A stretch of DNA of 64,000 bases from a virus: IMG/VR virus record IMGVR_UViG_3300042691_007361, positions 42,796-106,795 of that record; one strand, 5' to 3'. Of this stretch, positions 2,990-26,063 are shown one piece after another. Within the stretch, counting starts at the first letter, position 1. Each line of letters begins with the position of its first letter. The position numbers and the translations under genes are program-made. The notes under the pieces were generated by a model. That model made no database searches, was not told the DNA's origin, and saw only the letters and a list, made by a program, of their open reading frames with translations.

Positions 2990-3016
2990 TTTGTAAAACA
3001 ATTTAAAACCAACATT

Positions 3017-3456: not shown

Positions 3457-3807
3457 ATGTATATATCAGAAAGAAAATACAAGAATGCTCTTGCTGTAAT
3501 TAATCAGTATAAAGCTCAACAAAAAGAGCTTGAGAAAAACAAAGTAAAAGAAAGCGGAATAACATTAGCTACTACACTTAAAGAACTTAAAGATAACAAT
3601 CTTATATCCCCTAAGTTGTACCGTACTTTAGAAGAAATCTATAAATGGGATTATGCATACTCAATAAATGATACTCCTCTTGAGCCATATATTGGTTTCT
3701 TTATAGAGACTAAATATGAAGATATATCTAAATGGCGTGGAATAGGTAAGACTATGAGAGATGAATTTGTATCACTAATGGCTGCCGCTGGGCATGAAGT
3801 AGTATGA
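3457..3807 (+). CDS. small helix-hairpin-helix protein upstream of DNA polymerase
   Basis: A 116-residue protein whose C-terminal region reads WRGIGKTMRDEFVSLMAAAG (about residues 92-111). This matches the helix-GxG-helix pattern of helix-hairpin-helix DNA-binding motifs, as in the RNA polymerase alpha C-terminal domain and many repair proteins. The N-terminus is a lysine- and glutamate-rich helix, probably a coiled coil (QYKAQQKELEKNKVKE). The stop overlaps the polymerase start (ATGA), so the two are translationally coupled and this may be a DNA-binding accessory of the polymerase. The motif is clear; the partner is inferred. Confidence 0.7.
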   Translation: MYISERKYKNALAVINQYKAQQKELEKNKVKESGITLATTLKELKDNNLISPKLYRTLEEIYKWDYAYSINDTPLEPYIGFFIETKYEDISKWRGIGKTMRDEFVSLMAAAGHEVV

Positions 3808-8235: not shown

Positions 8236-8252
8236 GCTCCCCATTTTTTTTT
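8224..8252. terminator. bidirectional terminator at the convergence of the two blocks
   Basis: GGGGAGC (8224-8230) and GCTCCCC (8236-8242) form a perfect 7-bp stem around AATAA. A nine-base T run (8244-8252) follows on the plus strand and TTTCTTTTT follows on the minus strand. It serves the rightward pyrophosphatase transcript and the leftward late transcript; the pyrophosphatase stop codon is in the loop and the late-gene stop codon overlaps the T run. Confidence 0.9.
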
Positions 8253-11200
8253 AGTTAAGGTTTTGGAATGTCTCTCTAGACTTGATTGCATGTATTGGGT
8301 CATAGTTCTTACCTCTGACACCAAAGATACCCCCTATGTGGTTCCATAGTTTATAGTCTCCTTCTTCCTGCCAGAAGTATGGACCAACATCTTGTTTATA
8401 GATTGCTGAGTCATCTCCTGTAGCCATGTGGAATAGGTCTGCCATTATCTTTAATGTGTTACCTATTATTGGTCCTGAAGCTAGGGAAGCTGGATTAATG
8501 AAGTTCATGAAGTCATCAAATCCTACTATAGGAACTAAGAGCTCATTCTCTGATTTTACTGCCATAAGTTGGTAAAGTAAGTGATTAGAAAAATAACCCA
8601 TTGCTCCCCAATCTTTTTCTCTTTTTCTGAGTTTGTTGAAACGGTCTTCATCATCATCATCATATCCAAAGATAAATCCAACAGCTAGTCCCATCATAGC
8701 AAGGTAAATACCTTCAGCTAACATTCTTCTAAATGCAGCTTTTTCTTTATCAGATGCCATTGGATAATATTTACCCATGGTTTTTACTGTTCTCCACATT
8801 AATTGAAGACCGGATATGTAGTAACCTTTTGTAAGGGTGTTCATGTTAAAGTCATAGACCTCTCCTCCAAAGTTTTCTTTAGAGGTATCAAATTGGAATC
8901 TATGTACAAACATTGGTAATGAGAATAGACGGTAGAAAGTAAAGAGTCTAAATCCAAGATACTTACTTGCCAGTGGTGTATCTAATTGGTCTATTAGACC
9001 ATTAAGTCTTTTACCTACTCCCTGTACCTTAAGTTTGAAGTCATTGAAGAGTGCATTCTCAGAGATGATAAGCTCATCTCCTTCTTTTACATCTGCCGGA
9101 TCTTCAATGTCATTCTTTTTCATCAAGTCCTCTACAGTAAGATTGTATTTCTTTGCTACTGACTCAAGTGAGTCACCTACTTGATATACATGGTTTATTG
9201 ATTGTACTCCATACTCAGGATCAATACCATCTTTAAGTTTAATCATACCTTTATCATCAAGCTCAAATGCATCTGAGTATCTAATCTTCTGTATATTCCC
9301 TGCTGAATCTGTTTGGTCAATGTATTTGTTATACATCATTCCCCAGAATACTTCAAGACCAGCTTCAACTTCAGCAAGCTTTCTAGCATCATACATCCAT
9401 GTCATATCTAACATGTCTTTAAGGAAACTTCTAGAAGCTGATTTACTGAAGTCTTTTTTAGTCTTACCTGTGATAGGGTCAAAGTACTCCATCATTTGTA
9501 TATCAAGAGACTTAGGTCCATGTGTATATATACCTTTTGTCATCAGCTGAATAGTAGCTGTATATGCTCTATACTTACCTAGAGCAAGTGACTTAGCTGT
9601 TATATACTCTGCTCCGGCTGCTTCAATCATAGACTGGAACAACATACCGTAACGGTTCTTAGCAGCAGAGACCATATCTAATGCAATAAAGGATCTACTT
9701 GTATTTCCCATAAGTGCGTTAGCTAGCTTAGTAACTCTTACATTTTTTTCATTAAACTCAGCATTGACTTTACCGTAGAAAGTTCTCTCAAGGAATTCAT
9801 CAAATGCTTTTGCTCTTTTGTTATCTCCTGTAGGTATAAAAGAGAGCATGCCTGTTGACTTCTTAATTTGCTTACTGATTCTGTTCATGTCTTTTATGGC
9901 ATTCTCAGAATTGTTAAGCACATCACTTATTAGTTTTGCTATAGGCTCAATTTCAGAAAGCTTCTTCTGTACAGTAAGTGACTCCATGTAATCATAGAAA
10001 CTTCTCAGGAAGTCCATTGATACATCTTGTTTCTTTAATCTATATAGACCACGTACAGGAATTCTAGTAAGTGGATTACCTAGTAAGTCAGTACCAATAG
10101 CAGTAGCCTCAGCATTGTAGTTAAACATCCATTCAGCAGCATCTGCAGTCTTTTCTTTACCAAAGAATCTTTGACCTAGTGTTTTTGCTGAGCTTAATTT
10201 ATCTTCTACATTCTCCCTGGCTTTACCAGACTGTACCATCTCTAGATTACTTCTATGAAAGAAGTTAGCATAGTCATAGTATAACTTACTACCAAAGCCT
10301 TTGTCATCCTGAACTCGTAGATACTCTTTCTTAAGCTCTTCAAGTAACTTATATGTTGGTGAATTAAGCTTCTTAAGATCATAGTACTCTTGATTCATGT
10401 ACTTATTATCATATGCAGAATCCTTTTTACCGGGAGTATACTCTTTAGGCAAGTAATTGTTTCTGTTATCTACAGTAACTCCAACAATCTTTGGTGTAAC
10501 ATATTCAGGTTTAGGAACTACTTTGTTGTATTTACCACCTGGAACAGCATATCTAATAATTTCTTTCCCTGTTATTGGATGTACAAGTTTTGTAGTCTTG
10601 TAATTCTCAAGACCGATTGGTTTAGCTACAGTCCATGCAGAAGTTCTAAATACTTTAATAGCTTTTTGCTTTATTGCAGGATCCCAAACTTCTTTAGTAT
10701 AATGATTCTGTATAAACCACTGGTCAAATGCTTCACTCTTAGTTCTTGCTTCTAGTATTTTAGGTGAGTTAATAAACTCATCTGCATTATCAATAGTAAC
10801 ATCATCAATACCAGTACCTCTTAAAGCATAATTAATTGCTGCTATATAGTAATCAGTAGGTTCTTTGTAACTAAGCTCTGATAAGTCTCTGAATAATACT
10901 CTTAGTTTCTCAAGCTCAAGTGGACCAAGACCCATATCATTCTTAATGTTGATAAGGTCATCATACTCTTGTCTTTCTGATTCACTAAGTGCAGGACCAT
11001 TATTGATTCTATCTTGGTAAGTTTTAAGCTTTTCTGCATCCTCAAGTGATAGACCAGACTTCTTATCAAACTGTGCTTCAAGATTTACAAGCTCTACCTC
11101 TATTTCTTTTACACGTTTTCTCTGCTCTTCAGTAAGCTGGATACCATTTACCTGACGGTTCTTATCTGTAGTCTTACCAATAATGTCATAGCGCTCTTCA

Positions 11201-14200
11201 ATAAGTTCAGCTCTACGTTTAGCAATCTCAGATTTTAATCCGGGCTTATCAGTAATCTGTCTTATCTGAGCAATTATATCTCTTCTAGTTTCAACATACT
11301 TATCAGAGTATGCTACACGCATATTCTTACGGAAGAATCTTTCTAGCTCCTCATTGAAGACATCAGGCTTCTCTTCCATAGTAATACCTTTGGCTGCTAG
11401 CTTATCAACGTAGTTATCAAGTTCTCTTTGTAAACTATCTACATCCGGTTCTCCTGTCATGAACTTTCTAGATACAGATCTGTAATGTTTCATTACAAGA
11501 GCTTTCTCTAAAGCTTCACCAGTTTTCTGAGTACCATCAGGATAGTATACATCATAAAGACTTTCATACTCCATCTTAGCTTCATCAGCAGCCGTAGCTT
11601 CAAGCATATCATCTCTATCTTCATACTTAATATTCTGAAGAGTATTCATCTTTTCTATAGCAGCTGCTCTTTCTAGGTAAGCTTGGAAAGACGTATCTGC
11701 ATTTACAACAACTTCTGATTTGGTAAATGGATTGATAAGCTTGTTATCTTGTGTCCAGATATTAAACTTCTCATAGTATTCATCTACCATTGGACGGTGC
11801 ATGTACTTCTTCTCAAAGTCAATAAGGTTCTTGTAAGCTTCTTTTACTAGAGTCTTATCCTTTTTATCCTTGGCATTCTCATACTCATTCTTCAGCTTAC
11901 CATAATCATAACGCCAGTTTTTAAACTTGTCATGATATGTAAACCTTTCATACTCTACCCACTCACCGGTTTTACTGTCTGTATAACCATCTTTATCAAG
12001 TAATAATAGTTGTTTACCAAGTGCGGCAACATTATTCTCATTGTATCCTGCTTGTCTTAATAGTGGGTCAAGTTTACTTGCTATCTGATCTCTTTCTCTG
12101 AGTAGTTCTAACTCAGTATTAGACAACTCAATTGAGATATCTCTTGCAAATGTTCCTATAACAGGGTCATCAATGTTCTTAATAGGAATAAGATTAGCTG
12201 CTATATAACCAATGTCTCCGCGTTCACCTTTCAAGAATGCATCATACTGCTCTCTTGTAAGACGTTTATCATTATACTGCTGAACTAATTTAGCAATGTA
12301 AGGCTTACGTTTTATATCAAGAGACAATCCTGCGTTATCAAGATTAAACTCCCGCATCAACGGTGCATTGACTACACTATCAATAAAGTCATTGATTGCA
12401 TCAGTAGATATGTTATCTGCTTTTAGTGCTTTTGTGATATCAGCTTTAAACTTTTCATCAATCTCTTTACCCATAGAGGCACCCTTCTTCTCAAAGTATT
12501 GTCCGGCAAATTCTTGTTCTATATCATTGATCTTTCTAATTGCATCATTTACACTAGTATTGATACCATTAAGAGTCTTTACAAAATCAGTTTCTTTATT
12601 TAGACCTACTGCTACACGTACATCCTCTACAAGTTTCTTCTGTCTGATCAAGAAATCTTTGAAGTACATTACCTTTGTAATCTCTTCTGTTTTAATCTTA
12701 CGCGGGTCACCACTTATTTTTCCTAGTGCCTTGTCAATATTTTCAACAAAGACTTCAATATGTGCTATTGAATTTACAAGAGCTAGAGTTCTTAGTCTGA
12801 ACTCTTCTTGCTGATCCTTCATTGCACTAATTGCATTCTCAGGTTTTACTTTTGTAGGATCATCGGATACAGTCTGGTATGGTCTTAAGTCTTCAGCAAT
12901 GTATCTTAAAAACTTGATACCCTCTCTACTTTCTAATAAATCTTTTAGTCTCTTTGGAGATTTACTAAGCTGATCAAGTTCATACATGTTTTCTGCATAT
13001 ACATTATTGATAGCTTTCTGTAACTTACCGTCCTCAACCTTTTGGAATTGAGAAACTATACTTGAGATATCTTTCTTAAACTCAGCAAAATCTGTTTCAC
13101 TAAATACAACATTATCAATTTGAAAATCCTCATTGACCATCATATTTGCTAAGTCATCTAGAGTAGTATCAACACTAAGTTTATCTAGGTTTACCTTACC
13201 AACCAGTTCCTTGATTAGTTTCTTTATAGCAAACAATATATTCTGAATGAACTGTTTGAAACCTTCTTCAGTTTCTGTTTGCTCATTTACCTTATTCATT
13301 GCTGCTTTTTCAAGAGCATTTACAATAACCTCTTCTTTAAAACGGTCACTCTCAAACTCTAGATTAGGATAGTTAACTACTACATTTTCAATAAGTTTAA
13401 CACCGGTAGCTGAAGTTCTGAGTTGATAATATAGTTTATCAAATAGACCGGGATTCATTTTTGCTATACCCTTAACAAGTGGGTGAGCATATTCATGAAG
13501 TACTAGTTCTGTAGAAAGTTTATCACCTACAAAGTATACTGTATCATTATAATAGAACGCAGCTTCTCCTTCATAAGGAGTTGTTGTATTCTCAAGTACT
13601 CTTGTTGCTTCTGCTGCACTTATCATAGTATAAGGTACACCAAATGCTTTTGCAAACTTATCTCCTAATCTTACTGCAATCTCCTTTGCCTTCTCCTTTT
13701 TCTGAGTTTCAGGGTCAGCAGCAAAGTTTTCATTGAAATCATTAACTTCTTCTTCATCTTGTTCTTCTGTAGTTTTAATTCTATCAGCTAAAGGTTTAAT
13801 TACTACTTCAACTGTATAGGCTTTTCTCTCTGATCTTGAGAGACTTATGACACTAGGAAACTTATCTGCCAGAGCTTCTACAATAGCAACATTAGGTTTG
13901 AAGATCAACTCTTCAGCAGCCTTTTGTTCTACTATAGAACCATAATTAGTAAATCCTCTTGTTACATAGTACTTACCCTTTAAAGGATGTATTACACCAG
14001 ATAGTAGAGATTGAATAGCTCTATCAGTAAGAAAAGGATTCACCTCAAATGCCTTCATAACATTTTGACGTACCTTCTGCTTATCATTTGTAAGCCAGTC
14101 TTTAACTTCTTTAGGAGTAGGATAATAGTACTCATCATTAGGACCAACCTTTCTTACAACAACTGAATAGTCATGTACAAACTTTTCAGCTAGGTCTGTC

Positions 14201-14256
14201 CCATATATATTTTCTAATGCCTTAAACTCTTTAAGACTTCTGACAATACACTTCAT
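8251..14256 (-). CDS. giant cargo/ejection protein with HExxH site, LysM domain and membrane helix
   Basis: A 2,001-residue protein, the last gene of the late block. LVLHEYAHPLVKG gives an HExxH zinc site (H254, E255, H258), with EEVIVNALE about 70 residues later as a possible third ligand, so a gluzincin-type metallopeptidase domain is likely. Long coiled-coil regions fill residues ~400-1300. A LysM domain (VGDSLESVAKKYNLTVEDLM, about 1685-1729) could bind peptidoglycan. A hydrophobic helix near 1845-1866 (YLAMMGLAVGFIFGYDDDDE) could enter the membrane. The domains suit a protein ejected into the envelope to form or open the DNA channel, which is inference. It is coupled to the polymerase gene by a TAATG overlap. 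Confidence 0.75.
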   Translation of the reverse strand: MKCIVRSLKEFKALENIYGTDLAEKFVHDYSVVVRKVGPNDEYYYPTPKEVKDWLTNDKQKVRQNVMKAFEVNPFLTDRAIQSLLSGVIHPLKGKYYVTRGFTNYGSIVEQKAAEELIFKPNVAIVEALADKFPSVISLSRSERKAYTVEVVIKPLADRIKTTEEQDEEEVNDFNENFAADPETQKKEKAKEIAVRLGDKFAKAFGVPYTMISAAEATRVLENTTTPYEGEAAFYYNDTVYFVGDKLSTELVLHEYAHPLVKGIAKMNPGLFDKLYYQLRTSATGVKLIENVVVNYPNLEFESDRFKEEVIVNALEKAAMNKVNEQTETEEGFKQFIQNILFAIKKLIKELVGKVNLDKLSVDTTLDDLANMMVNEDFQIDNVVFSETDFAEFKKDISSIVSQFQKVEDGKLQKAINNVYAENMYELDQLSKSPKRLKDLLESREGIKFLRYIAEDLRPYQTVSDDPTKVKPENAISAMKDQQEEFRLRTLALVNSIAHIEVFVENIDKALGKISGDPRKIKTEEITKVMYFKDFLIRQKKLVEDVRVAVGLNKETDFVKTLNGINTSVNDAIRKINDIEQEFAGQYFEKKGASMGKEIDEKFKADITKALKADNISTDAINDFIDSVVNAPLMREFNLDNAGLSLDIKRKPYIAKLVQQYNDKRLTREQYDAFLKGERGDIGYIAANLIPIKNIDDPVIGTFARDISIELSNTELELLRERDQIASKLDPLLRQAGYNENNVAALGKQLLLLDKDGYTDSKTGEWVEYERFTYHDKFKNWRYDYGKLKNEYENAKDKKDKTLVKEAYKNLIDFEKKYMHRPMVDEYYEKFNIWTQDNKLINPFTKSEVVVNADTSFQAYLERAAAIEKMNTLQNIKYEDRDDMLEATAADEAKMEYESLYDVYYPDGTQKTGEALEKALVMKHYRSVSRKFMTGEPDVDSLQRELDNYVDKLAAKGITMEEKPDVFNEELERFFRKNMRVAYSDKYVETRRDIIAQIRQITDKPGLKSEIAKRRAELIEERYDIIGKTTDKNRQVNGIQLTEEQRKRVKEIEVELVNLEAQFDKKSGLSLEDAEKLKTYQDRINNGPALSESERQEYDDLINIKNDMGLGPLELEKLRVLFRDLSELSYKEPTDYYIAAINYALRGTGIDDVTIDNADEFINSPKILEARTKSEAFDQWFIQNHYTKEVWDPAIKQKAIKVFRTSAWTVAKPIGLENYKTTKLVHPITGKEIIRYAVPGGKYNKVVPKPEYVTPKIVGVTVDNRNNYLPKEYTPGKKDSAYDNKYMNQEYYDLKKLNSPTYKLLEELKKEYLRVQDDKGFGSKLYYDYANFFHRSNLEMVQSGKARENVEDKLSSAKTLGQRFFGKEKTADAAEWMFNYNAEATAIGTDLLGNPLTRIPVRGLYRLKKQDVSMDFLRSFYDYMESLTVQKKLSEIEPIAKLISDVLNNSENAIKDMNRISKQIKKSTGMLSFIPTGDNKRAKAFDEFLERTFYGKVNAEFNEKNVRVTKLANALMGNTSRSFIALDMVSAAKNRYGMLFQSMIEAAGAEYITAKSLALGKYRAYTATIQLMTKGIYTHGPKSLDIQMMEYFDPITGKTKKDFSKSASRSFLKDMLDMTWMYDARKLAEVEAGLEVFWGMMYNKYIDQTDSAGNIQKIRYSDAFELDDKGMIKLKDGIDPEYGVQSINHVYQVGDSLESVAKKYNLTVEDLMKKNDIEDPADVKEGDELIISENALFNDFKLKVQGVGKRLNGLIDQLDTPLASKYLGFRLFTFYRLFSLPMFVHRFQFDTSKENFGGEVYDFNMNTLTKGYYISGLQLMWRTVKTMGKYYPMASDKEKAAFRRMLAEGIYLAMMGLAVGFIFGYDDDDEDRFNKLRKREKDWGAMGYFSNHLLYQLMAVKSENELLVPIVGFDDFMNFINPASLASGPIIGNTLKIMADLFHMATGDDSAIYKQDVGPYFWQEEGDYKLWNHIGGIFGVRGKNYDPIHAIKSRETFQNLN

Positions 14257-17200
14257 TATAGCTTACAATTTTTTAGGTGTTCAATATACTGTTCCTCTGA
14301 CATAGTATCAGCATACATTTCAAAATATGATTCAATCACATCATCTAAGTTACCAAGTTTTTGCTGTTGTTCAGCAGTCAGGGTATTATAAAAATCATCC
14401 AACATACTATAGTTACCTACTGATATTGCTGAGAAATCAAACCCGGATTCTTGAGCTGTGTTAATAGCATTCTTGTATGTATCAGGAATGTATTCAAACT
14501 CTATCTGCCATGCCTTATCAAGTTTTGGTCTTACTACTTTATTAAAGTAATCAGTTGACCATCCTTCAAGTTGTGACCATTGACTAGCTGTCTTACCACT
14601 ACCTACTAATTTGTGTAGAGGCTTAGTCACTTTTACTTTAAGAGAGTCACCGTTATCAGATACCCACTCAATAATATCACCTGTCTTAGCTTTCTTCCAA
14701 TAATCAAATCCTTTTTGATCTGAGTATCTTGTTGTAGCAGTTCTTTCTCCAAGAGCCACTGCTGCAATTGTGCTATCTGCAGTAACACCAGGACGTTTGT
14801 TATCACCATAAGAGAAGGACATCTTACCTTTGAATGATAAAGGTTGAGTAAGTTGGTTACTCATTGGCTTAAGGAACTCATTGAAGTTCTTTCTTGACTT
14901 AGCATATTTATCTGCTAGATCATTCATCTCTTCACCAGAGTGACCTTTAACCCAAGTAATCTTAACTGAACCACCATTAGCTTCAATCTTAGCAATTGCT
15001 GCTACTGCTTTATCAATCAAGTACTGAATATAAGGTTCTTTTGACTTCCATGGTTTGTCTGCACGTTGAAGTGATCCTTCTGAATGTTGCCATAGACCAT
15101 TGTAGTTAACAGCTCCGTTATAATCTTGATGGATAAACAAATGCTCCCCGGTATCTTGGAATGTTTCAAGTACTGTACTTAGTGCTAACATCTCCATTGT
15201 AGGATTACTAAACTTAGCGTTAGGGAATTTAGCTTGTAAATCTTTTACTGCTTCACCTTCTTGAGTACCTGAGAGACCAAACTCTTTATCTTGATACTTA
15301 TATACTGCACCAAATCCAATGTTACCTGTTCCTTTGATATCTGAACCATCAGAATATACTCTTATTGGTTCTTGTACTGTAGACATCTTAGCTGTTTTGT
15401 TTTCTTTAGCCTCTACTTTCTCTTCTTCAAAGAGGCTAAGTTGTTGATTATCACCCATATCCTTCTCTAATATTTCTGGTGATTCCTCAACTTCTGGAGC
15501 TTTTATATTGTTATCAACCCATAGACTAAACTCTGAGATATTCACAGGTTGATCCGTTGAGAAATCATGGAACAAGTTACTCAATTTATCAACATTAACA
15601 CCTGCCGTAGCCAGTCTATCTAGTATAATATTTAAACTTTGGTATGTGACATCTACATAATCATCATAGTCATCAGAGTATAGTTTTTGAAGATCAACAT
15701 TTTCTGGCACATCAATAATGGTTAGATCCGGATTTAAATCTTTAACCATTTGGTTAAACTCATTCTCTCCTAATTCATTAACAAGATTATCTATTGCTGT
15801 TCTTGTAGAAATTGTTTCTTCAAGTGGGAATGCAGTAACTTGATTTGAGTTAAATACTTTTGGTTCTACAACATAGTTTTTGAACTGTGAGTCACTCATC
15901 AAATTATTGTACACTTTAGATAAGCTAGCAGGGTTTAGATTATTTTGCATGAATGTACCAGCAGCACTACGCATTACTTCTAGATACATTGTATCATCAA
16001 GCGCTTTGTTGAATCCATATTTAGTATAACCTACACCATGTTGGTGGATCATCATTAGTGAGAAGATACGGAAGACATCACTTAGTCTTTTGTTATCTGC
16101 TTCTGATGATACCTTACGTACATTAACATCAGCTAACTCTCTAAGGTTCTGGAAATAAACATCACCTAGTTCTCCCTTAAGAATATTTCTATCATTAAGC
16201 TGAACTATCTTCTCTTTACCTTTATATGGTAATACAGATATCTGCCCAAGGATTGGATATCTATCTTTAAGTTGGGAGAACTCTCGGATAGTATTCATTA
16301 CCAAGTTAGTGTAAGAGAATTCATCTGTACCTACAATTGCATCTCTATTGAAAGTGTTTAATAGAGCACGTTGAGCTAAGAACTTTTCAAAGGCTGGAGT
16401 ATAGCTTTCACCTTCTGTATATATACTTCTTAGGTACTCTCTTTCAACTACATATCTATTAAAGGAAGCTTGAGATCTAAATGGGTCATCAGATACTTTG
16501 AAAGAGGTCAACCCTCTCTTAGTAAAGCTATCATTAGAGTCTGATGTTTTTAAATATTTTTTGTCAGTAAAGTCCCTGTTAAGCTGACCACGATCTACAT
16601 AAATAACTCCATCTTTATACTCAACTCCATTCTGAACTCCGGGCTTAATTACTATCTGTGAGCCTCTGTAATAGTCAGGTAATTCTGATATATTACCTTT
16701 AGAGTCAACAAAGTTAGACATGTAGTTTTGGAAGATGTAGTTAATCACAGCGTTATTAAACTCTGATGTAAATCTTTCCTCACCGTCCATACCCTGACCA
16801 AACTTTCTAGATATCTCAGTTTTGTTACCACCTAGTTTACTAGTAATAAAGTCTGATACTTCTTTGTTTAATCTTAATGGCATTACAGGTTCTACAAGAT
16901 CAAGAGCTAAGTCTCCTTGATAGAATGACCTAAGAATAGATTTGTTTCTGATTGCTTCTGGTAATTCAGGATCTACTTTAGATGTTTCTGTTGAATCAAG
17001 GAATGCTTGTTCTCTCTTTCTTACTTGCTGTATTGTCTTTAACAGTTTAGTATCTGGGTTAGACTGGCGTTTTACTGCCTCTAGACCCTTAATCTGTTTT
17101 TCTATTTCTAAGAAGTGTAAGAATGCTGCGTCCTGAATAGCTTTGTACTTAGGATTCTTTGGATCCTTGATGCTAGCTATTAGTGTTTCTTCATCAAAGT

Positions 17201-20200
17201 AACCTTTGTCATTAAGAATTCCAGGCTCGGATGTAGCAAGAACTGCAGCATCATATGCTGTGTCATTAGTTACAAGTGAACCAAATCTCTTATATAATAA
17301 GTTTTTCTTACTTACTTCTGCTCCTCTGTATATACTAACCACTTTTGCTGGTGTAGTTATGCCTTTTTGAATCGCAGTCTTCAAGTTTTTAACTAGAGTT
17401 ACTTGTGGTGCATTATCACCATCTAGAACTACAGAGATTGTATCATTATCACCAACCTTAGCTATTGCTCTGCTGTATGCGTTCTCATTTATCTGTTTAA
17501 GATATAATGCTCTTCTTTGATAAGGTATTCTTTTCTCAATTCTATTAGCGGCTTTGAACTTAGTAAAAGTAGCTTGAGGGATTTCTTTAGTAGCTAGTGT
17601 AGAGAATGTACTCTTAAGTAGCTTTTGATTACTTCCATACTCACGGATTGTAGGCTGAGATACAAATGCAATTGCTGTCTTCTCAGGTACTCCTGCTTCT
17701 AGTAAGTAGTTAAGGATGCTGATTGTTTCTAGGTTAGCTTGAATAAAGAATGCCCATGGATCTTTCTCAACATCAAGAAGACCATTCATGATATGAGAGT
17801 ATACGTCAGCAATTCTAGTACCTGCTACATTAACATTATTAGACAAAGAAATATGTCCGTCTATCTCAGCATGCGGTAGAAGTAATCTTGTTTCATAATC
17901 TCTCTCACCATCTACATACTTACCAGAGTTCTCATCAAAGAATGATTCTTTGTAAGTCTTAGGCATCTTAGCACCAATAGATTTAAAGATTGGGTGTTTC
18001 TTGTTTTGTAGAGCTTCAATACCTAGGGTATCTTTACCTACCATGTTTACATCATGCTTATGCAAGTTGTAACCTACTTCCAGAATACGGGTAGGGCTGA
18101 TAGCTTTTTTTCTTTTGCCACTATCATCAGCCGGACCCATTCTCTGTTCCTCACCATGCATATTCTTGTATCTGTTATACTCAATAACATATGGTTCAAA
18201 TTCATCTGCTGTACCTTTTACAAGGTGAGTTTCATTTGGACGTACAAGTGATGCAAAGTTTCCTGGAGTTGCCAATATATCTTTAGTAGCCTGGATCAAT
18301 TCATTCTCAAGTGCCTTCTTCTGTTTTTGAATTAGAGCTTTAGGACTTGGTTTTTTCATTCCAGGTTTTGGTTTGATCTTTTTAAGATCATCAATCTTTT
18401 GTTTTAACTCCTCATTGCTGATAGCTCCTGTTGCATACTCACCTTGTGTATTAATGTGAGGCATCATCCAGAAGATTTTATCAACGTCAAAGTCAGATCC
18501 TGCCTTAGCTACAATCTCTGTAGGTACAACAACTTTATTTCCTGCTGCTGGATCTAAGAAATGCCATACTTCACCAAACTCCATTGAGTTTAAGTTCTGA
18601 ATTGGAATACGTGCACCAGCAAGAGTAATTGCTTTACGGTTGTTACCAGTATCTAACCACTCATCATCTTTGATAGCTTCGTTTAGTCTACTGATATTAC
18701 CAATCTCTTCTCCTTTATATTGTAACTTAAGTAAGTTAACAAAGTCACCTTGAAGAGCAATAGCAATCTTCATTGCATTAGTCCCATCTTTACCTGGGTG
18801 ATATGAAGGAAGGTTGTTACTACCTAGATATTTCTTTTTATCTTTTTCTGAAGCTTTATCAAACTGTACTGTCTGATCCCAGAGACCATTGTACATTGTA
18901 CTTGGTACTTGTACTAATGCTTCTCCTTTTACCTTTTGTCTGATAAGTCTTTTAGTAAGTACAGACAATAGCATACGCTCAATAGTATCTGCTTCTAGGT
19001 GAAGTGATAAGTCAGTCTTTATGTTACCATTAAAGTCTACACCAATAGATCTTAACAAGTGATCTGGAATATCTCTTTTACCTAGTTCTTTTTGAATAAG
19101 CTCTAGGAAGTTCTTGATATTACCAATGTATTTACCATTCTTTTGCTCGTATCCAATCTCTTCAAGTATCTCTAACTTAAGTAAGTTAGTATACTGAGCA
19201 ACAACATCATCATACTTAGTTGCTAGTTTATCAAACTCAGGCTTAGTAATTGCTCCTTTATCAAATAATCCATCAAGGATTAATCCACGCAACTGAGTAG
19301 GGAAAGTAACTATTGTTTTGTATTTAGCATTGATATTAGTTACACTCTTAAGATACTCTAAGTAAATTGTATTCGGTGTAAGAGTAAGTTCTTTCTTAAG
19401 TTCTTTCTGTGTATCATCTGCAAAGATTACATCTGCTTTTCCATTAGATGTAACATTACCAACTTTAGAACCTGATTCATATGTTAGATACTGAATGTTG
19501 TTTCTCATCATCTCTTTATGAAGATGTTCTAATTGAGAACCAGCAATCTCACTAGGAATCAGCGGCATCAATGCAAACTTATGGAAAGATGTCAATGGCA
19601 AATCTGTATTTGCTAATGGTCCAAAGTTCTGTAACTTATATACCGGGAAGTAGTTAACTACATCAGATGCTTTTATAGGAACTTTATTTATTATTTTCTT
19701 GTAAAGCTCTTCTTGTTTATTACTCCATGCATTTTCTAGCTTCTTAAGTGTACGGTATGCATCAATACCAATTACACCTGCACCATCAGCCTCATTCATT
19801 TCTTTATAAGGCTTAAGTTCTTTTTCTAGTAGGTCATTTATCTGAGCTTCAGATTTACCATTTAGTTTATACTCTGCTCTAAGACCAGCTTCTATATCCT
19901 TAAGATAAACAGACGGGCGCTCAACATCTTTGACTACAGCAGTATTAAAAGTACCATCATAGTGAAACTTGTTGTAGTCATCATTCTTTTCTTCAGCGGC
20001 TACCTTAGATGCATATGTAACTCTCTCAATTATATTACCATCATCATCTACTCTATCTTTATTCCAGATATTATTAATGAAGTCTTGAGCCATTACATCA
20101 GTAAGGAACTTAGGTCCACCTGAAGTAGAACCTGTGTTACGCTTATGCATCTCTTCTTTAAGGTGATTGTACTGAGCCATATCACCATAGAATAGATTAA

Positions 20201-23200
20201 TAGTTTCAAAGTTATGTATCCAGGAGTTGTACGTATATGATTTTACAATAGCAGCTTTTTGCTCAACCTCATTAAGGTCATTAGGTCCAAGCTTATCAAA
20301 TAGAGATTGATCAATATACTCTTGTACACCAAGGAAAGATAAGTTATCTGCAGTTTGTTCACCAAAGTAATTAATCATATCATTAATTACCTTTTGTTTT
20401 AGACCTGTTCTATCAGTTCTTAAGAAGTCTTCAAGTGTACCTCCGCTTTCTTTGATAGCATTCATTACTTCTTCTGAAAGTAATTCTTTTTTAGTATCTT
20501 CAGAAAGTACATTATCAAATGATGTTAGTACCTCACCGGCATATATCTTTTCACCATTCTCTCCTCTAGCAACTACTTTGTTATATCCACCATATTTCAG
20601 AAACTCATCCTTATTATCTTTGAATTTCATTATACGTTCATACTCAGCACCTAGATAAGGAATTAGTATGTTATTGATAGCATAGATATCTCCACCACCG
20701 TTGGGTGTAAACATTGACATGTCTACATAAAGATTTTTGTCTTCTCCTTTACCTGGATAAGATACAACACCACCATCTACTTTTACTCCAAATGATGATT
20801 TCTTAGATGCATGGCGGATGAATTCCTGTATACCACCTTTTAACATAAGGTGCATCTCTTGTAGGAACTTACTATAGATATCTAATGATGTTGTGGTAGT
20901 ACCAATATCTTCATTGGCAATCTGAGTACCAGCATCAATAAATAGTTTTAAAGAGCGCCCCTTGATTTTATCACCGTTTCCTTCAGTAGAGAAGATACTA
21001 TTGAGGATCTGAGATCTATTGTTATTTACAAATGAGTTAATCTTAGGATTAAGATAAGACATGTATTTAAACGGATTCTCTGCTGCTGTAGGATTAGAGT
21101 AAAGCTCTTTGATATTGTTTACTCTGTTTATAGCATCAACCTGACGGCTGATAGAGTGATCATCAATAAATTCATTAACAAGATTCTTCTCCGGGTTGAG
21201 CACAGAAAAATTAGATCCCTCCAAACCATATCTCATCTGAAGTTCTGCTAATCTCTTTACAATATTTTTTTGGTATACCTCTTTTACTTTCAAACCTGGA
21301 AGAATAGTGCCAGGTATTTTAGCTTGGAAAGTAGTAAGTGGATTAACTACAAAGTCACCAAGAACAGATATTGCTGCTTGACTAGCTGTAGTTCCTTTAG
21401 CTTGGATATTAGCTAAGTCTTTTACAATAGTGTATAGATACTGTAAACCATAGTAGTCTACATTATCCTTAAGTCTATCCTTTATAACTTTAAGATCATC
21501 AAAGATAAAACCAATAGCTCTGGCAAATTCAAATGATTTATTTACATCTAATTCATTTGGTCTTCTCTTATCTGCAAAGTCAGATACAAGTTTGCTTAAA
21601 TCATTTAGAGTAGTTACATTTTCTACTTTAGTGATGTATGGATTATCTCTTTCTGATTGAGCTTTGAACTCCGCCTGAAACTTCCTAATAACATTACTTG
21701 CATCAATTGATGCATCAGTCACCTCAACACTTACTTTATCTACTGTAAGTTTACCTGTCATATAATCATATGATTTATCCAGGTATCCAGTTAACTGCAT
21801 ATAAGGCACTCTCGGTCTTGAGAATGTCTGCCATATAGATGCAAGTACATCAAACTCTGCACTCCTCTCAATCCTTTGTGGATTAGGAAGTTTACTGTAA
21901 ACAAGTTGCTGTAACTCTGGTGAGTATGTTTGAGCTGCTTTCTCTAGCTTCTCATACATCAGGTTAATATCTTTAACTCCACCAATCTCTCTAGTGATAA
22001 TCTTCCATATCTTGGAGAAGTCTGCTAACTGATTAAAGCCTAGCTTGTTAGGTACAACTTCTCCTTTTTCTTTTTTGAATAGACTCTTGATTACATAGAT
22101 AGCTTCTTTTTGAGCAAGTTGTTCTAATGACTTCTTACCTACTTCACCTGTTTTTACAATTGAATCAGATGATCCTTCAGCACTAGTTTCATCAACTGGT
22201 TCTCCGTCTGCATCTTTTTCTTCATATGACTCTTCTGTATAATCCTCACGGATAATGTCAAAGCGGCTATTCTCCTTATGGTATTTAACTACACCTTTCT
22301 TATCATCACCCCAGTTATCTAATGTAACTTGTAAAAGTCTGATTTTATCAAGAAGTTCTTCTTGTTCAAACGTCAATGGTTTGTACTGAGGTCCTTCTTT
22401 TATAATAAGATCTGTTATACTAGTTGCACCACCGCGCTTGTAATTATCAAATTGTACTTGTGCATCTCTAAGATCTTTAACAATAATGATATCAGCTTGA
22501 TCATTATCCTCAGACTTAATAGTTTTATGAGAATAGAAATCAGCTACTATATCTATACCATAGTAGGATTGACCTTTAATTCTTTCTCCTCCTTTAGTAT
22601 CTGGATTAAGATTTTCAAAATTGTCAATTTGATTTGCAAGGAACACGTACTTGTTGTCTCCTTTTTTGCTTTTAAATATGGCTGCTGCATTGCTTTCTAA
22701 TTCACCTATGGTTTCTAATGCACTAAAAGGAGTTAAGGTAATACTACCTAATTCATCTTGGAACTCCTTAAGTTTATCTTGGAATATCTCTTTTACTGAC
22801 TCATATGCTACTGCACGGTTTTCAGGGTCAGTAAGCAATTTAATTGTAGAAGACTTTTTACCAAAGCCCTCATTAAGAGAATCCACAAGTCCAGAGATAA
22901 CTGAATCAATTGACTCATTGATTAGTATTGAATCTTGTCTACTTAGAGCATCTTCTCCTCTAGCATCAACTCTTTCAATACCACGGTTTAACATATCCCA
23001 CATAACATTATCAATGCTAGGTGAATATGTATTCATAAATATTTTACTTGCTTTTTTACTTGACCCAGCAAAGTATAGCTTATTGAATAACTCAGAAGCA
23101 GTTGCAGGATAGTCTTGATTAGCTACTGAAGCTTTGTCTACAACAACTTGTGCTGAACCTACTTTACCAAACAGAGCCTTAAGGAAGTCAAGTATCTTTC

Positions 23201-26063
23201 TAAAGATAGATTTCTTAACAGGAGTATCTTTCATTTCCTGTTTTGGATTCTTAGCAAAAGATCTAAAGTCTTCAGCTAGCATCTCTTCTATCTCTAGGTA
23301 TGATTTATTAAGATAAGGCTTATTACCTTTCTTATCAGTATAGTTTCTTACCTCATTGTATAGGCTAGTCTTCTGATCATTGGTTAGATAAAGCTGAGAG
23401 AATGCATGCCATGCTTCATGGTATACATCAACCATTGTTCCTTTGTTGATTTGAATCTTACCAAGTGTATCACCAGATAACAATGTCTGACCTGATACTA
23501 CAAAGCGCGCATATACATCTGAGTTAACTAGGTTAGCTGCGTGATCAATACCAATCAATCCTTTAAGTGGATTGAACTTACTATTCCACCAATTATTAGC
23601 TTCTTCTACCTGAGCTTTTGTAGCATCATTAGGTAAGTAACCTGCACGGTCAAGACCTTTCCAGTTCTTATTTAAAAGATTAGCTGTATTAGTATTCTTG
23701 TTTGTTGGCGTAACTGGATTTTGATTTTGCTCAATATCTTCAATAACAGGAGATACAGGTGTCTTATCTTCATCAGTTGGAACTTCAATCTCTAGTTCTT
23801 CAGCCTCTTCTGGTACTGCTGGTTGACTATATTCACTTACATCTTTCTCAGCAATAACACCAATATAATCTCCTGTAGATCCATCTTTGTTTACTTTAAA
23901 GATTTCAACTACATCCTTATATGTTACACCGTCTGCAACTAATTCATCTCTAACCTTGAGTCTAACAGCTTCACCTTCTGTAGGGAAGTTTGTGTCTTTG
24001 TAACTCTTATCACCTTTAGTAATAATAAGAGTCTTGTTAGGATAGTATGCTTTTGCTTCTGCATCTGCACCTGGTACATCTACTTGGTAGTTAGCATAGA
24101 ACTTACCCATATAGAAACCTGACTTAGGTGACTTTGCTGTAGCATCTAATTCTCCTGCTTCTTTTACTAAATCAACAATCTGATCTTTAAGCTTCTTAGT
24201 TTCAGTTCTGTTATCTTGAGATACTTTGTCTTTAGCCTGTTGGATAATTGTATTAGTTTTATTCGGTGCTGCAAAGAAGATATAACTATTAACAGAGTCC
24301 TTGTTTACATCTCTAAGGTTAATTGTTGCAGGAAGAGTTTTTAAATAATCAATATAATTTCCAAATGTAAGTCTCTTTGTATCAGCATTATACACAAAGT
24401 AACGTTCATTCTTTAAAAGATCACTGTTAAATGTCATCTTTGAAGGAAACATTTTATCCTTTCTGCCTTTACCAGACATTAACACATCATAGATCTTCTT
24501 TTCATATGATGCTAACTGATCATCAGAAAGTGCTTCTACAACTACTTGAGAAAGATCAATTGTATTATCTAGAAACTTACGTGATTGATTTTGTTGGAAA
24601 GTCTCATTAGAATAATTAAAGTAGAACTCCTGATTAGGAATATTTGTAGAAGTGCTATGTCTTCTTGCTCTATAGTCAATCTTGTTATTAAAGAACTGAT
24701 AATAGAAATCTGTTCTTACTTTGAATGGTAAGTTTCTATCTGTTAATACTTTAGATACTTGTTTTGCTACATCATCAGTAGTATCTGGTCTATCTATTAC
24801 AACTTCAGTACCGTTAATAGTAATTGTAGCATATCCTTTCTTGAATCCTGCTCTATCTTTCTGTACTGTCTTGATGCTTTTAAATACTTGCTTATCAATG
24901 TCAGCCTTCTTAGAAAGGTCAGAAAGAAGAATTGTTTTTCCTACTAGACCCTCAAGAACACCTGGGCTTATACCAGATATAGGTAATGTTATCTCTTCTT
25001 TATTGTTTAGGACTCTTTCTTTGATATTATATAGAAGAGCCATTTCATTTTGTTGCTCTTGTGCTATACTATTAATTACTGCTGGATCATTTGTTTTATA
25101 CAATGACATTGCAATTTCTGCAGGAGAAAGAACAGACTGATATCCATAGATATTGGATACACTGTACTTACCATTCTCTAATCTTGTATCTCTTAAAAAC
25201 TGATATACAAGTTTACCTCCATCAGCTTTAGTACTTATATCTCCATTTTCTGAGAAGTAGACAAACTTACCATCTCCATCAGTCATCACTAATAGTACTT
25301 GCTCATCTGCAGGTGTTACACCCTCAGCAGTTTTAGCAGTCTTCTTAATTGACTTTGACCGGATGATGATATTTTTAGTATAGTTATCTAGCTCATCTTG
25401 ATTAATAGATGTAAGCTGAACAGCTTTAAGCTTTAAAGTTGTACCTTGGTATACTAAACTATCTGCTGCAGAATCAACACCATCAGTCTCAGTCTGAATC
25501 TTATTCAGAGTATTATAGATAGTTCTTTTAGACTCATCAAGAGTTTCAATAAACATATCTACTCTAGTAGGGTCAGCTGCAATTAGTTCTTGGGATGTAC
25601 CACTTAGTGACGTATATGGTCTAAAGCGCTCAGAAGGATAGTAAAAAGTACCCTCTGGGTCCATCTCTTCAGTATTACCTGCTTCACCCTTTAATGTATT
25701 TACATAAGCTCTAAGAAACTTTTTTGATGTTTCCTTATATGTATTGATTACATTATTGATACCGTTGTCAACATCTAAGTATGAACGCCCTAGCTCAGCT
25801 AGAGAGTTTAAATCTAACTTTGTAAAGCTTGGGTTCTGAATAAAGTCTGTGTTGTACAGATCAATAATCATACGTGGTACATGCTGAATTAATTTAGCAG
25901 CAGTTTCAGGAGTTGAAGCTTGAGCTTTATTACCATATACATAAGCCATATAGTCTGCAGGAGAAAACGGTTCAGCTCCCTCCTTTAATGAATCAGACAT
26001 ATGTTTGTATATACTCTTATATAATTTTTCTACTGTTGTACTAGATAAGGCACAATTGATCAT
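14256..26063 (-). CDS. crAss-like virion RNA polymerase, giant multidomain form (3,935 aa)
   Basis: Probable virion-packaged, single-subunit, multisubunit-related RNA polymerase that transcribes early genes after ejection. The key evidence is AKAGSDFDVDKIFW (D2524, D2526, D2528), the DxDxD metal loop of crAss-like polymerases (DFDID in phi14:2 gp66). It is preceded by GARIPIQNLNSMEFGEVW, which aligns by eye with the region before the same loop in cellular beta' subunits. Other domains: an HEAWH zinc-protease-like site (H882, E883, H886); RNase HI at ~3555-3720 with all catalytic residues (D3572, E3624, D3647, H3708, D3718); and an ASCH-like domain at ~3740-3885 (GERTATTRY). It is far longer than phi14:2 gp66, so it may be a polyprotein. 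Start is 11 bases after the upstream stop. Confidence 0.85.
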   Translation of the reverse strand: MINCALSSTTVEKLYKSIYKHMSDSLKEGAEPFSPADYMAYVYGNKAQASTPETAAKLIQHVPRMIIDLYNTDFIQNPSFTKLDLNSLAELGRSYLDVDNGINNVINTYKETSKKFLRAYVNTLKGEAGNTEEMDPEGTFYYPSERFRPYTSLSGTSQELIAADPTRVDMFIETLDESKRTIYNTLNKIQTETDGVDSAADSLVYQGTTLKLKAVQLTSINQDELDNYTKNIIIRSKSIKKTAKTAEGVTPADEQVLLVMTDGDGKFVYFSENGDISTKADGGKLVYQFLRDTRLENGKYSVSNIYGYQSVLSPAEIAMSLYKTNDPAVINSIAQEQQNEMALLYNIKERVLNNKEEITLPISGISPGVLEGLVGKTILLSDLSKKADIDKQVFKSIKTVQKDRAGFKKGYATITINGTEVVIDRPDTTDDVAKQVSKVLTDRNLPFKVRTDFYYQFFNNKIDYRARRHSTSTNIPNQEFYFNYSNETFQQNQSRKFLDNTIDLSQVVVEALSDDQLASYEKKIYDVLMSGKGRKDKMFPSKMTFNSDLLKNERYFVYNADTKRLTFGNYIDYLKTLPATINLRDVNKDSVNSYIFFAAPNKTNTIIQQAKDKVSQDNRTETKKLKDQIVDLVKEAGELDATAKSPKSGFYMGKFYANYQVDVPGADAEAKAYYPNKTLIITKGDKSYKDTNFPTEGEAVRLKVRDELVADGVTYKDVVEIFKVNKDGSTGDYIGVIAEKDVSEYSQPAVPEEAEELEIEVPTDEDKTPVSPVIEDIEQNQNPVTPTNKNTNTANLLNKNWKGLDRAGYLPNDATKAQVEEANNWWNSKFNPLKGLIGIDHAANLVNSDVYARFVVSGQTLLSGDTLGKIQINKGTMVDVYHEAWHAFSQLYLTNDQKTSLYNEVRNYTDKKGNKPYLNKSYLEIEEMLAEDFRSFAKNPKQEMKDTPVKKSIFRKILDFLKALFGKVGSAQVVVDKASVANQDYPATASELFNKLYFAGSSKKASKIFMNTYSPSIDNVMWDMLNRGIERVDARGEDALSRQDSILINESIDSVISGLVDSLNEGFGKKSSTIKLLTDPENRAVAYESVKEIFQDKLKEFQDELGSITLTPFSALETIGELESNAAAIFKSKKGDNKYVFLANQIDNFENLNPDTKGGERIKGQSYYGIDIVADFYSHKTIKSEDNDQADIIIVKDLRDAQVQFDNYKRGGATSITDLIIKEGPQYKPLTFEQEELLDKIRLLQVTLDNWGDDKKGVVKYHKENSRFDIIREDYTEESYEEKDADGEPVDETSAEGSSDSIVKTGEVGKKSLEQLAQKEAIYVIKSLFKKEKGEVVPNKLGFNQLADFSKIWKIITREIGGVKDINLMYEKLEKAAQTYSPELQQLVYSKLPNPQRIERSAEFDVLASIWQTFSRPRVPYMQLTGYLDKSYDYMTGKLTVDKVSVEVTDASIDASNVIRKFQAEFKAQSERDNPYITKVENVTTLNDLSKLVSDFADKRRPNELDVNKSFEFARAIGFIFDDLKVIKDRLKDNVDYYGLQYLYTIVKDLANIQAKGTTASQAAISVLGDFVVNPLTTFQAKIPGTILPGLKVKEVYQKNIVKRLAELQMRYGLEGSNFSVLNPEKNLVNEFIDDHSISRQVDAINRVNNIKELYSNPTAAENPFKYMSYLNPKINSFVNNNRSQILNSIFSTEGNGDKIKGRSLKLFIDAGTQIANEDIGTTTTSLDIYSKFLQEMHLMLKGGIQEFIRHASKKSSFGVKVDGGVVSYPGKGEDKNLYVDMSMFTPNGGGDIYAINNILIPYLGAEYERIMKFKDNKDEFLKYGGYNKVVARGENGEKIYAGEVLTSFDNVLSEDTKKELLSEEVMNAIKESGGTLEDFLRTDRTGLKQKVINDMINYFGEQTADNLSFLGVQEYIDQSLFDKLGPNDLNEVEQKAAIVKSYTYNSWIHNFETINLFYGDMAQYNHLKEEMHKRNTGSTSGGPKFLTDVMAQDFINNIWNKDRVDDDGNIIERVTYASKVAAEEKNDDYNKFHYDGTFNTAVVKDVERPSVYLKDIEAGLRAEYKLNGKSEAQINDLLEKELKPYKEMNEADGAGVIGIDAYRTLKKLENAWSNKQEELYKKIINKVPIKASDVVNYFPVYKLQNFGPLANTDLPLTSFHKFALMPLIPSEIAGSQLEHLHKEMMRNNIQYLTYESGSKVGNVTSNGKADVIFADDTQKELKKELTLTPNTIYLEYLKSVTNINAKYKTIVTFPTQLRGLILDGLFDKGAITKPEFDKLATKYDDVVAQYTNLLKLEILEEIGYEQKNGKYIGNIKNFLELIQKELGKRDIPDHLLRSIGVDFNGNIKTDLSLHLEADTIERMLLSVLTKRLIRQKVKGEALVQVPSTMYNGLWDQTVQFDKASEKDKKKYLGSNNLPSYHPGKDGTNAMKIAIALQGDFVNLLKLQYKGEEIGNISRLNEAIKDDEWLDTGNNRKAITLAGARIPIQNLNSMEFGEVWHFLDPAAGNKVVVPTEIVAKAGSDFDVDKIFWMMPHINTQGEYATGAISNEELKQKIDDLKKIKPKPGMKKPSPKALIQKQKKALENELIQATKDILATPGNFASLVRPNETHLVKGTADEFEPYVIEYNRYKNMHGEEQRMGPADDSGKRKKAISPTRILEVGYNLHKHDVNMVGKDTLGIEALQNKKHPIFKSIGAKMPKTYKESFFDENSGKYVDGERDYETRLLLPHAEIDGHISLSNNVNVAGTRIADVYSHIMNGLLDVEKDPWAFFIQANLETISILNYLLEAGVPEKTAIAFVSQPTIREYGSNQKLLKSTFSTLATKEIPQATFTKFKAANRIEKRIPYQRRALYLKQINENAYSRAIAKVGDNDTISVVLDGDNAPQVTLVKNLKTAIQKGITTPAKVVSIYRGAEVSKKNLLYKRFGSLVTNDTAYDAAVLATSEPGILNDKGYFDEETLIASIKDPKNPKYKAIQDAAFLHFLEIEKQIKGLEAVKRQSNPDTKLLKTIQQVRKREQAFLDSTETSKVDPELPEAIRNKSILRSFYQGDLALDLVEPVMPLRLNKEVSDFITSKLGGNKTEISRKFGQGMDGEERFTSEFNNAVINYIFQNYMSNFVDSKGNISELPDYYRGSQIVIKPGVQNGVEYKDGVIYVDRGQLNRDFTDKKYLKTSDSNDSFTKRGLTSFKVSDDPFRSQASFNRYVVEREYLRSIYTEGESYTPAFEKFLAQRALLNTFNRDAIVGTDEFSYTNLVMNTIREFSQLKDRYPILGQISVLPYKGKEKIVQLNDRNILKGELGDVYFQNLRELADVNVRKVSSEADNKRLSDVFRIFSLMMIHQHGVGYTKYGFNKALDDTMYLEVMRSAAGTFMQNNLNPASLSKVYNNLMSDSQFKNYVVEPKVFNSNQVTAFPLEETISTRTAIDNLVNELGENEFNQMVKDLNPDLTIIDVPENVDLQKLYSDDYDDYVDVTYQSLNIILDRLATAGVNVDKLSNLFHDFSTDQPVNISEFSLWVDNNIKAPEVEESPEILEKDMGDNQQLSLFEEEKVEAKENKTAKMSTVQEPIRVYSDGSDIKGTGNIGFGAVYKYQDKEFGLSGTQEGEAVKDLQAKFPNAKFSNPTMEMLALSTVLETFQDTGEHLFIHQDYNGAVNYNGLWQHSEGSLQRADKPWKSKEPYIQYLIDKAVAAIAKIEANGGSVKITWVKGHSGEEMNDLADKYAKSRKNFNEFLKPMSNQLTQPLSFKGKMSFSYGDNKRPGVTADSTIAAVALGERTATTRYSDQKGFDYWKKAKTGDIIEWVSDNGDSLKVKVTKPLHKLVGSGKTASQWSQLEGWSTDYFNKVVRPKLDKAWQIEFEYIPDTYKNAINTAQESGFDFSAISVGNYSMLDDFYNTLTAEQQQKLGNLDDVIESYFEMYADTMSEEQYIEHLKNCKL

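What the first reader, a model, noticed from the sequence alone, without database searches (positions are those of the whole stretch)
14256..15410. RNase HI and ASCH-like domains fused to the C-terminus of the polymerase
Seen: residues ~3555-3720 hold all RNase HI catalytic positions (D3572, E3624, D3647, H3708, D3718), with WVKGHSGEEMND matching the E. coli WVKGHAG region. Then GERTATTRY and the following beta-rich segment fit an ASCH-like RNA-binding fold. Inferred: an ejected polymerase that carries an enzyme able to remove RNA from RNA-DNA hybrids could clear R-loops or process primers. I do not know of this fusion described in crAss-like phages.
Basis: partly seen in the sequence, partly recalled or inferred. 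Interest (0 to 1): 0.75.

Follow-up and report, generated by a model that had tools for sequence, protein, structure and literature searches.

The report
RNase H payload on phage polymerase
The giant RNA polymerase that a crAss-like phage very probably injects into its host carries an intact RNA-DNA-hybrid-cutting enzyme (RNase H) and an ASCH nucleic-acid-binding domain at its tail end, just before a lone terminal cysteine that, across related phages, is always matched by a lone cysteine at the start of the next injected protein, as if the injected proteins were chained head to tail.

Summary
Observation confirmed. ORF 14256-26063(-), 3935 aa, is a crAss-like virion-type RNA polymerase (DFDVD at 2524; 24% identity over 516 aa to phi14:2 gp66, E 8e-23). 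Its C-terminus holds an RNase HI domain with all catalytic residues (PF00075; Foldseek best hits E. coli RNase HI), then a true ASCH domain (AlphaFold pLDDT 95; Foldseek YqfB and other ASCH proteins).
The fusion recurs: 7 of about 80 crAss-like polymerases surveyed carry RNase H there, with at least four gains/losses on the polymerase tree; 49 polymerase-bearing records have it nowhere else. The polymerase C-terminus is an interchangeable payload site (also NADAR, AlkB-like, SLOG, helicase, DUF1848). Activity and purpose are inferred.
The same C-terminus gave something more surprising. The three transcription cargo proteins (1946+3935+2001 aa) contain four cysteines, all at the ends that face the next protein. 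In relatives, C-terminal cysteine of one protein and N-terminal cysteine of the next always occur together, and vanish when the two genes are fused. phi14:2 gp67-gp66-gp65, found in virions, obeys exactly. I propose a head-to-tail disulfide chain of ejected proteins, with RNase H-ASCH as payload at a junction.

The parts
14256..26063 (-). crAss-like virion-type RNA polymerase ORF, 3935 aa, with C-terminal RNase H and ASCH
   Evidence: 24% identity over 516 aa to phi14:2 gp66, E 7.7e-23, and to crAss001 gp50, E 1e-14; cr108_1, E 7e-36
18480..18494 (-). DFDVD catalytic DxDxD motif of the polymerase (residues 2524-2528)
   Evidence: invariant G-S-D-x-D-x-D in alignment A3
15390..15506 (-). acidic linker between polymerase body and RNase H (residues 3520-3558)
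   Evidence: read from sequence; homology to sister L021 ends at residue 3426
14874..15389 (-). RNase HI domain, residues 3559-3730; D3572, E3624, D3647, H3708, D3718
14481..14825 (-). ASCH domain, residues 3747-3861, motif GERTATTRY
14268..14480 (-). C-terminal helical tail, residues 3862-3932 (pLDDT about 57-77)
14265..14267 (-). Cys3933, third residue from the C-terminus; one of two cysteines in the 3935-aa protein
26052..26054 (-). Cys4 of the polymerase; pairs with the terminal Cys of the upstream protein
26078..26080 (-). Cys1946, last residue and only Cys of the upstream cargo protein
26075..31915 (-). upstream cargo protein, 1946 aa, crAss001 gp47-like
   Evidence: 25.8% over 240 aa, E 2.3e-9
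8251..14256 (-). downstream cargo protein, 2001 aa, crAss001 gp49 / phi14:2 gp65-like; carries a LysM domain
   Evidence: E 1.7e-6 to gp49; family HMM built without the window, E 4.4e-58; LysM
14248..14250 (-). Cys3, only Cys of the 2001-aa downstream protein

Best explanation
The C-terminus of this crAss-like virion RNA polymerase is a payload site at the junction between the polymerase and the next cargo protein. In this phage it holds an intact RNase HI plus an ASCH domain. The polymerase is packaged and ejected into the host with its two partner proteins. Once refolded, the RNase H removes RNA from RNA-DNA hybrids formed in the first minutes of infection. I think the likeliest hybrids are those the polymerase itself leaves on the incoming genome. 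The ASCH domain positions the enzyme by binding nucleic acid or a modified base. Shown here: the anatomy, the intact catalytic site, the recurrence and exchange of the cassette, and homology to proteins found in virions. Inferred: activity, ejection of this particular protein, substrate and purpose.
For: RNase HI by profile, fold and catalytic residues. ASCH by family profile and fold. The same fusion in L010, L011, L012, L056, L080 and L083. No stand-alone PF00075 match in the 49 polymerase-bearing records searched. RNase H is 58-62% identical between polymerases whose bodies give no BLAST match to each other, so it is under strong constraint, transferred, or both. Sister L021 (46% identical body) lacks the cassette and cousin L022 has ASCH plus a SLOG-like domain. 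No conserved internal Met at the domain start. Homologues gp66 and gp50 are virion proteins (PMC10172136).
Against: No activity is measured. RNase H next to a polymerase could destroy the polymerase's own transcripts if they stay hybridised. The patchy distribution says it is dispensable in most crAss-like phages, which fits counter-defence as well or better. The YqfB catalytic Lys21 is an invariant Arg in this ASCH family (PMC6972931), so its role is unknown. TerL, portal and MCP of cr108_1 gave no match in this record, so placement beyond 'crAss-like transcription block' is open.
Confidence: 0.5

Rival explanations
1. Injected counter-defence. The RNase H destroys RNA-DNA hybrids on which host immunity depends (CRISPR R-loops, retron or defence-RT products, Argonaute guides), and the polymerase C-terminus is a general delivery bay for such enzymes.
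For: Other domains in the same place are NADAR, AlkB-like 2OG-oxygenase, SLOG, DUF1848 and a RecD/PIF1-like helicase. Patchy gain and loss. The DUF1848 copy matches the PADLOC model RTasDUF1848 of DRT systems, E 7.6e-20.
Against: The RNase H-ASCH part itself matches no PADLOC model. No link to a particular defence system was tested. RNase H can also help some defence systems, for example retron maturation (own knowledge).
Confidence: 0.3
2. Replication role: the RNase H removes RNA primers or processes polymerase transcripts into primers for the phage DNA polymerase.
For: The phage encodes a DNA polymerase (phrog_1252) and RNase H is the textbook primer-removal enzyme.
Against: Why it would need to be fused to a virion protein and injected is unexplained. 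Most crAss-like phages surveyed lack it.
Confidence: 0.12
3. The domain is a degenerate or structural hitch-hiker without catalytic activity.
For: Extremely patchy distribution.
Against: The catalytic acidic residues and the active-site His are kept in divergent copies, and 58-62% identity persists where polymerase bodies are unrecognisable by BLAST.
Confidence: 0.06
4. Translation or proteolysis makes the RNase H-ASCH part a separate product, so it is not a polymerase domain in the cell.
For: Met3560 lies just before the RNase H; giant phage proteins can be processed.
Against: The Met is not conserved in the fused relatives. The terminal Cys that pairs with the next protein lies beyond the cassette, which would be pointless if the cassette were cut off.
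Confidence: 0.08

Closest known systems
crAss-like virion RNA polymerase, phi14:2 gp66 / crAss001 gp50 (Crassvirales)
   Same: DxDxD active site, order of three giant transcription proteins, sequence similarity (E 8e-23 and 1e-14), terminal cysteines
   Different: gp66 (2180 aa) and gp50 (2412 aa) give no match to the RNase H or ASCH profiles
Bacterial RNase HI (E. coli RnhA)
   Same: Fold and all catalytic positions including the active-site His
   Different: Fused to a virion polymerase; extra FSNPTMEM and SEGSLQR-PKPWK segments conserved in the phage subfamily; no cysteine in the fused copies that were counted
Phage stand-alone RNase H (phrog_531)
   Same: Best profile family for this domain
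   Different: The GenBank phage records with an RNase H match were not crAss-like; many carry it as an annotated RNase H gene
ASCH domain proteins (YqfB, L. crispatus ASCH)
   Same: Fold and the G-x-x-T-x-T-x-R strand
   Different: Catalytic Lys21 of YqfB is Arg; sits inside giant phage proteins; circularly permuted in cr114_1 and L132
Phage N4 virion RNA polymerase gp50 and T7 ejection proteins gp15, gp16
   Same: Ejected proteins with no cysteine at all
   Different: Unrelated to this polymerase family; no paired terminal cysteines found

Membership tests
RNase HI (PF00075) | RNase H fold | tested here: met
   AlphaFold model and Foldseek, E 4.6e-8
RNase HI (PF00075) | D-E-D-D catalytic residues and the active-site His | tested here: met
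   D3572, E3624, D3647, D3718, H3708; kept in relatives
RNase HI (PF00075) | profile score over curated cut-off | tested here: met
   42-48 bits vs 25.8
RNase HI (PF00075) | cleaves RNA in RNA-DNA hybrids | not testable with these tools
   needs enzyme assay
ASCH domain (PF04266) | ASCH/PUA-like beta-barrel fold | tested here: met
   Foldseek: EF3133 3.3e-4, YqfB 8.5e-4, L. crispatus ASCH 7.6e-3, all probability 1.00
ASCH domain (PF04266) | profile match | tested here: inconclusive
   17 of 28 family members match, best E 1.5e-5; the window copy alone does not
YqfB-type ac4C amidohydrolase | catalytic Lys21-Thr24-Glu74 | tested here: not met
   Lys21 position is invariant Arg; Thr kept; Glu outside the aligned stretch (residues from PMC6972931)
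crAss-like virion RNA polymerase | DxDxD motif and homology to phi14:2 gp66 | tested here: met
crAss-like virion RNA polymerase | flanked by gp47/gp67-like and gp49/gp65-like proteins | tested here: met
   crAss001 gp47 E 2.3e-9, gp49 E 1.7e-6; downstream family HMM E 4.4e-58
crAss-like virion RNA polymerase | present in virions and ejected | not testable with these tools
   shown by others for homologues only (PMC10172136)
order Crassvirales | crAss-like TerL, portal, MCP | tested here: inconclusive
   no match with cr108_1 proteins in the 106.8-kb record, which may be incomplete or very divergent

The most novel reading that the evidence does not exclude
The transcription cargo of crAss-like phages is a head-to-tail covalent chain. 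A single cysteine at the C-terminus of each cargo protein forms a disulfide with a single cysteine at the N-terminus of the next (gp67-gp66-gp65 in phi14:2; 1946-3935-2001 aa here), doing by chemistry what gene fusion does in other members. The chain threads through the tail in a fixed order and equal numbers and falls apart in the reducing host cytoplasm. Payload enzymes such as this RNase H-ASCH cassette are inserted at the chain's junctions.
Probability: 0.6. Interest if true: 0.9.

Novelty: new variant of a known kind. Interest (0 to 1): 0.78.

Why it matters
An RNase H physically tied to an injected polymerase would show that crAss-like phages deliver nucleic-acid-processing enzymes together with the transcription machinery, before any phage gene is expressed, and that the polymerase tail is a swappable delivery site. 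The paired terminal cysteines bear on an open question, how megadalton protein cargo leaves the capsid in order through a narrow tail, and make it testable with a non-reducing gel and cross-link mass spectrometry on two cultured phages.

Tried and rejected
Internal start making a separate RNase H: the Met before the domain is not conserved. YqfB-like ac4C hydrolase: catalytic Lys replaced by Arg. Stand-alone RNase H elsewhere in crAss-like records: none in the 49 polymerase-bearing records searched. Nucleotide-level cause of the cysteines (translation coupling): rejected, because spacing and codon context vary (MAC, MNTC, MSKKDC, MAKSTGC) and in crAss001 gp47 lies on the other strand from gp50. 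Apparent exceptions to the cysteine rule: L078 and L086 end in Cys once TAG is read as Gln, as in their clade; L058, L087 and L093 have a ~160-aa ORF in between, followed by an ORF starting MSIIC, MLC or MTC. Thioredoxin and glutaredoxin in this record: none. Placing the phage by cr108_1 TerL, portal and MCP: no match; tblastn of two large left-end ORFs found only short non-crAss matches or none. Literature search with NADAR+crAss returned noise. The phi14:2 polymerase paper (PMC12127119) is not held, so its text could not be checked for mention of the cysteines. An N-terminal fusion of the upstream protein could be detected by profile in only 4 of the 23 polymerases lacking an N-terminal Cys, so the fusion side of the rule is strong only for the C-terminal junction.

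Full report
OBSERVATION. The ORF at 14256-26063 (minus strand) encodes 3935 aa without interruption. Pfam RNase_H matches 3567-3723 above its curated cut-off, phrog_531 'Rnase H' matches with E 1e-17, and E. coli RNase HI chains are the PDB sequence hits. A two-domain AlphaFold model (pLDDT 84.5) gives E. coli RNase HI as best Foldseek matches (E 4.6e-8, probability 1.00). The ASCH segment, modelled alone with 28 relatives (pLDDT 95.2), matches EF3133 (DUF984), YqfB and L. crispatus ASCH with probability 1.00. 17 of 28 family members match PF04266 on their own, although the window copy does not.

IDENTITY OF THE POLYMERASE. The DxDxD motif DFDVD is at 2524. The protein matches phi14:2 gp66, the catalytic virion RNA polymerase (24% over 516 aa, E 7.7e-23), and crAss001 gp50 (E 1e-14). 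The upstream ORF matches crAss001 gp47 (E 2.3e-9) and the downstream ORF matches gp49 (E 1.7e-6). Those homologues were found in virions (annotation; PMC10172136). I could not find crAss-like TerL, portal or MCP in the 106.8-kb record, so 'crAss-like' rests on the transcription block and the virus may be a divergent or incomplete member.

HOW COMMON IS THE FUSION. A scan of IMG/VR with a polymerase-core profile gave 80 loci. With earlier loci, C-terminal RNase H is found in seven polymerases: window, L010, L011, L012, L056, L080, L083. A search of 50 records found PF00075 only in the six fused relatives and in L013, a stand-alone copy in a record not selected by its polymerase. A Bacteroidota contig (L019) carries the same RNase H subfamily fused to a RecD-like helicase. 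On a polymerase tree of 72 rows RNase H needs at least 4 changes and ASCH at least 7. The window's nearest relative L021 (46% identity over 1650 aa) has neither domain, and L022 has ASCH plus a SLOG-like domain. RNase H identity between the window and L010-L012 is 58-62%, while BLAST finds no other similarity between those proteins. tblastn with the window C-terminus and with the L056 RNase H found RNase H in none of the crAss-like records of the GenBank phage set.

A PAYLOAD SITE. Beyond the polymerase body the C-termini of 45 crAss-like polymerases carry RNase H (7), cpYpsA SLOG (2), NADAR (2), AlkB-type 2OG-oxygenase (2), DUF7831 (2), and single cases of a RecD/PIF1-like helicase and DUF1848. 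ASCH occurs in 37 viral loci, nearly always in giant ORFs and often near the C-terminus of a polymerase. In cr114_1 and L132 it is circularly permuted. Where polymerase and downstream protein are one gene, ASCH sits at or near their boundary (L047: ASCH 2974-3083, downstream part from 3234; L097: ASCH 4061-4167, downstream part from 4858).

PAIRED TERMINAL CYSTEINES. Aligning the C-termini showed a terminal Cys as the only near-invariant column. In the window the three cargo proteins (7882 residues) contain four Cys: last residue of the 1946-aa protein, residues 4 and 3933 of the polymerase, residue 3 of the 2001-aa protein. If four Cys were placed at random, the chance that all fall within four residues of an end is about (24/7882)^4, or 1e-10 (own arithmetic). 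By base composition about 2.4% of codons would be Cys. phi14:2 has the same arrangement: gp67 C1797 of 1797, gp66 C3 and C2179 of 2180, gp65 C3, no others. crAss001 gp47 has C at -3, gp50 C5 and C-9 (plus one inside), gp49 C5, although gp47 is on the other strand. Over related loci, polymerase C-terminal Cys and downstream N-terminal Cys co-occur 38 of 38 times; polymerase N-terminal Cys and upstream C-terminal Cys are both present 28 times, both absent 7 times, never discordant. Of 22 polymerases fused to the downstream protein none has a C-terminal Cys; of 47 unfused 45 do (Fisher 5e-16), and the other two do once TAG is read as Gln. In a gene-junction count, 60 of 86 junctions have both, 23 neither, 3 C-terminal only, 0 N-terminal only; the 3 are resolved by an intervening small ORF. 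Sequences are related, so these counts are not independent; independent contrasts on the tree are few (2 and 3 pairs on well-supported branches) but all agree. Inner Cys are absent in 27 of 79 polymerases and at most 3 in 46, so Cys depletion is a tendency while the junction rule is near exact. N4 gp50 and T7 gp15 and gp16 also have no Cys, so depletion may be general for ejected proteins.

MECHANISM. The simplest reading of one Cys on each side of each junction, lost on fusion, is a disulfide between consecutive proteins. Disulfides are seen in the crAss001 tail and portal vertex (PMC10172136), where the polymerase cargo was unresolved; that paper suggests six copies of each of the three polymerase-associated proteins could be stored, which a 1:1:1 chain would fit. 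Alternatives are a shared metal site or another thiol chemistry. No direct evidence for a bond exists here. For the RNase H, the likeliest function is removal of RNA from hybrids on the incoming genome; counter-defence is close behind because of the company it keeps at this site. All functional steps are inference.

VERDICT. The fusion is a new variant (known polymerase, known RNase HI). The cysteine pairing was found inside the same region and is the more surprising result.

Noticed in passing
8251-31915 (Cys codons 14248-14250, 14265-14267, 26052-26054, 26078-26080); relatives L003-L102, L150, L151: Paired terminal cysteines at the ends of consecutive transcription cargo proteins, absent when the genes are fused; suggests a head-to-tail disulfide chain.
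   Followed up: yes
L010, L004, L022, L052, L056, L083, L084 polymerase C-termini: crAss-like polymerase C-termini carry NADAR, AlkB-like oxygenase, SLOG/DprA-like, DUF1848, DUF7831 or helicase domains.
   Followed up: partly
L003 residues 4075-4202 of the polymerase; L132:3786-4136: The ASCH domain is circularly permuted in cr114_1 and in L132 relative to the window.
   Followed up: partly
L019:3480-6134: RecD-like helicase fused to the same RNase H subfamily in a Bacteroidota MAG contig.
   Followed up: no
window RNAP residue 882 (HEAWH) and 2001-aa protein residue 254 (HEYAH): Two HExxH zincin-like metalloprotease motifs in the giant cargo proteins.
   Followed up: no
8251-14256, residues 1694-1731: LysM domain in the downstream cargo protein (Pfam E 2e-7).
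   Followed up: no
L011, L012 (GSDKDID), L061, L072 (GSDNDVD): Polymerase active-site motif with Lys or Asn in place of the usual Phe, all three Asp kept.
   Followed up: no
L062 and L088 (193-aa ORF), L077 (744-aa ORF): Extra proteins inserted after the polymerase carry a Cys at both ends, and the following protein again begins with a Cys, extending the chain by one link.
   Followed up: partly
L134, L138, L143, L146: Giant ORFs without a recognised polymerase motif in which no cysteine was found and which also contain the ASCH domain.
   Followed up: no
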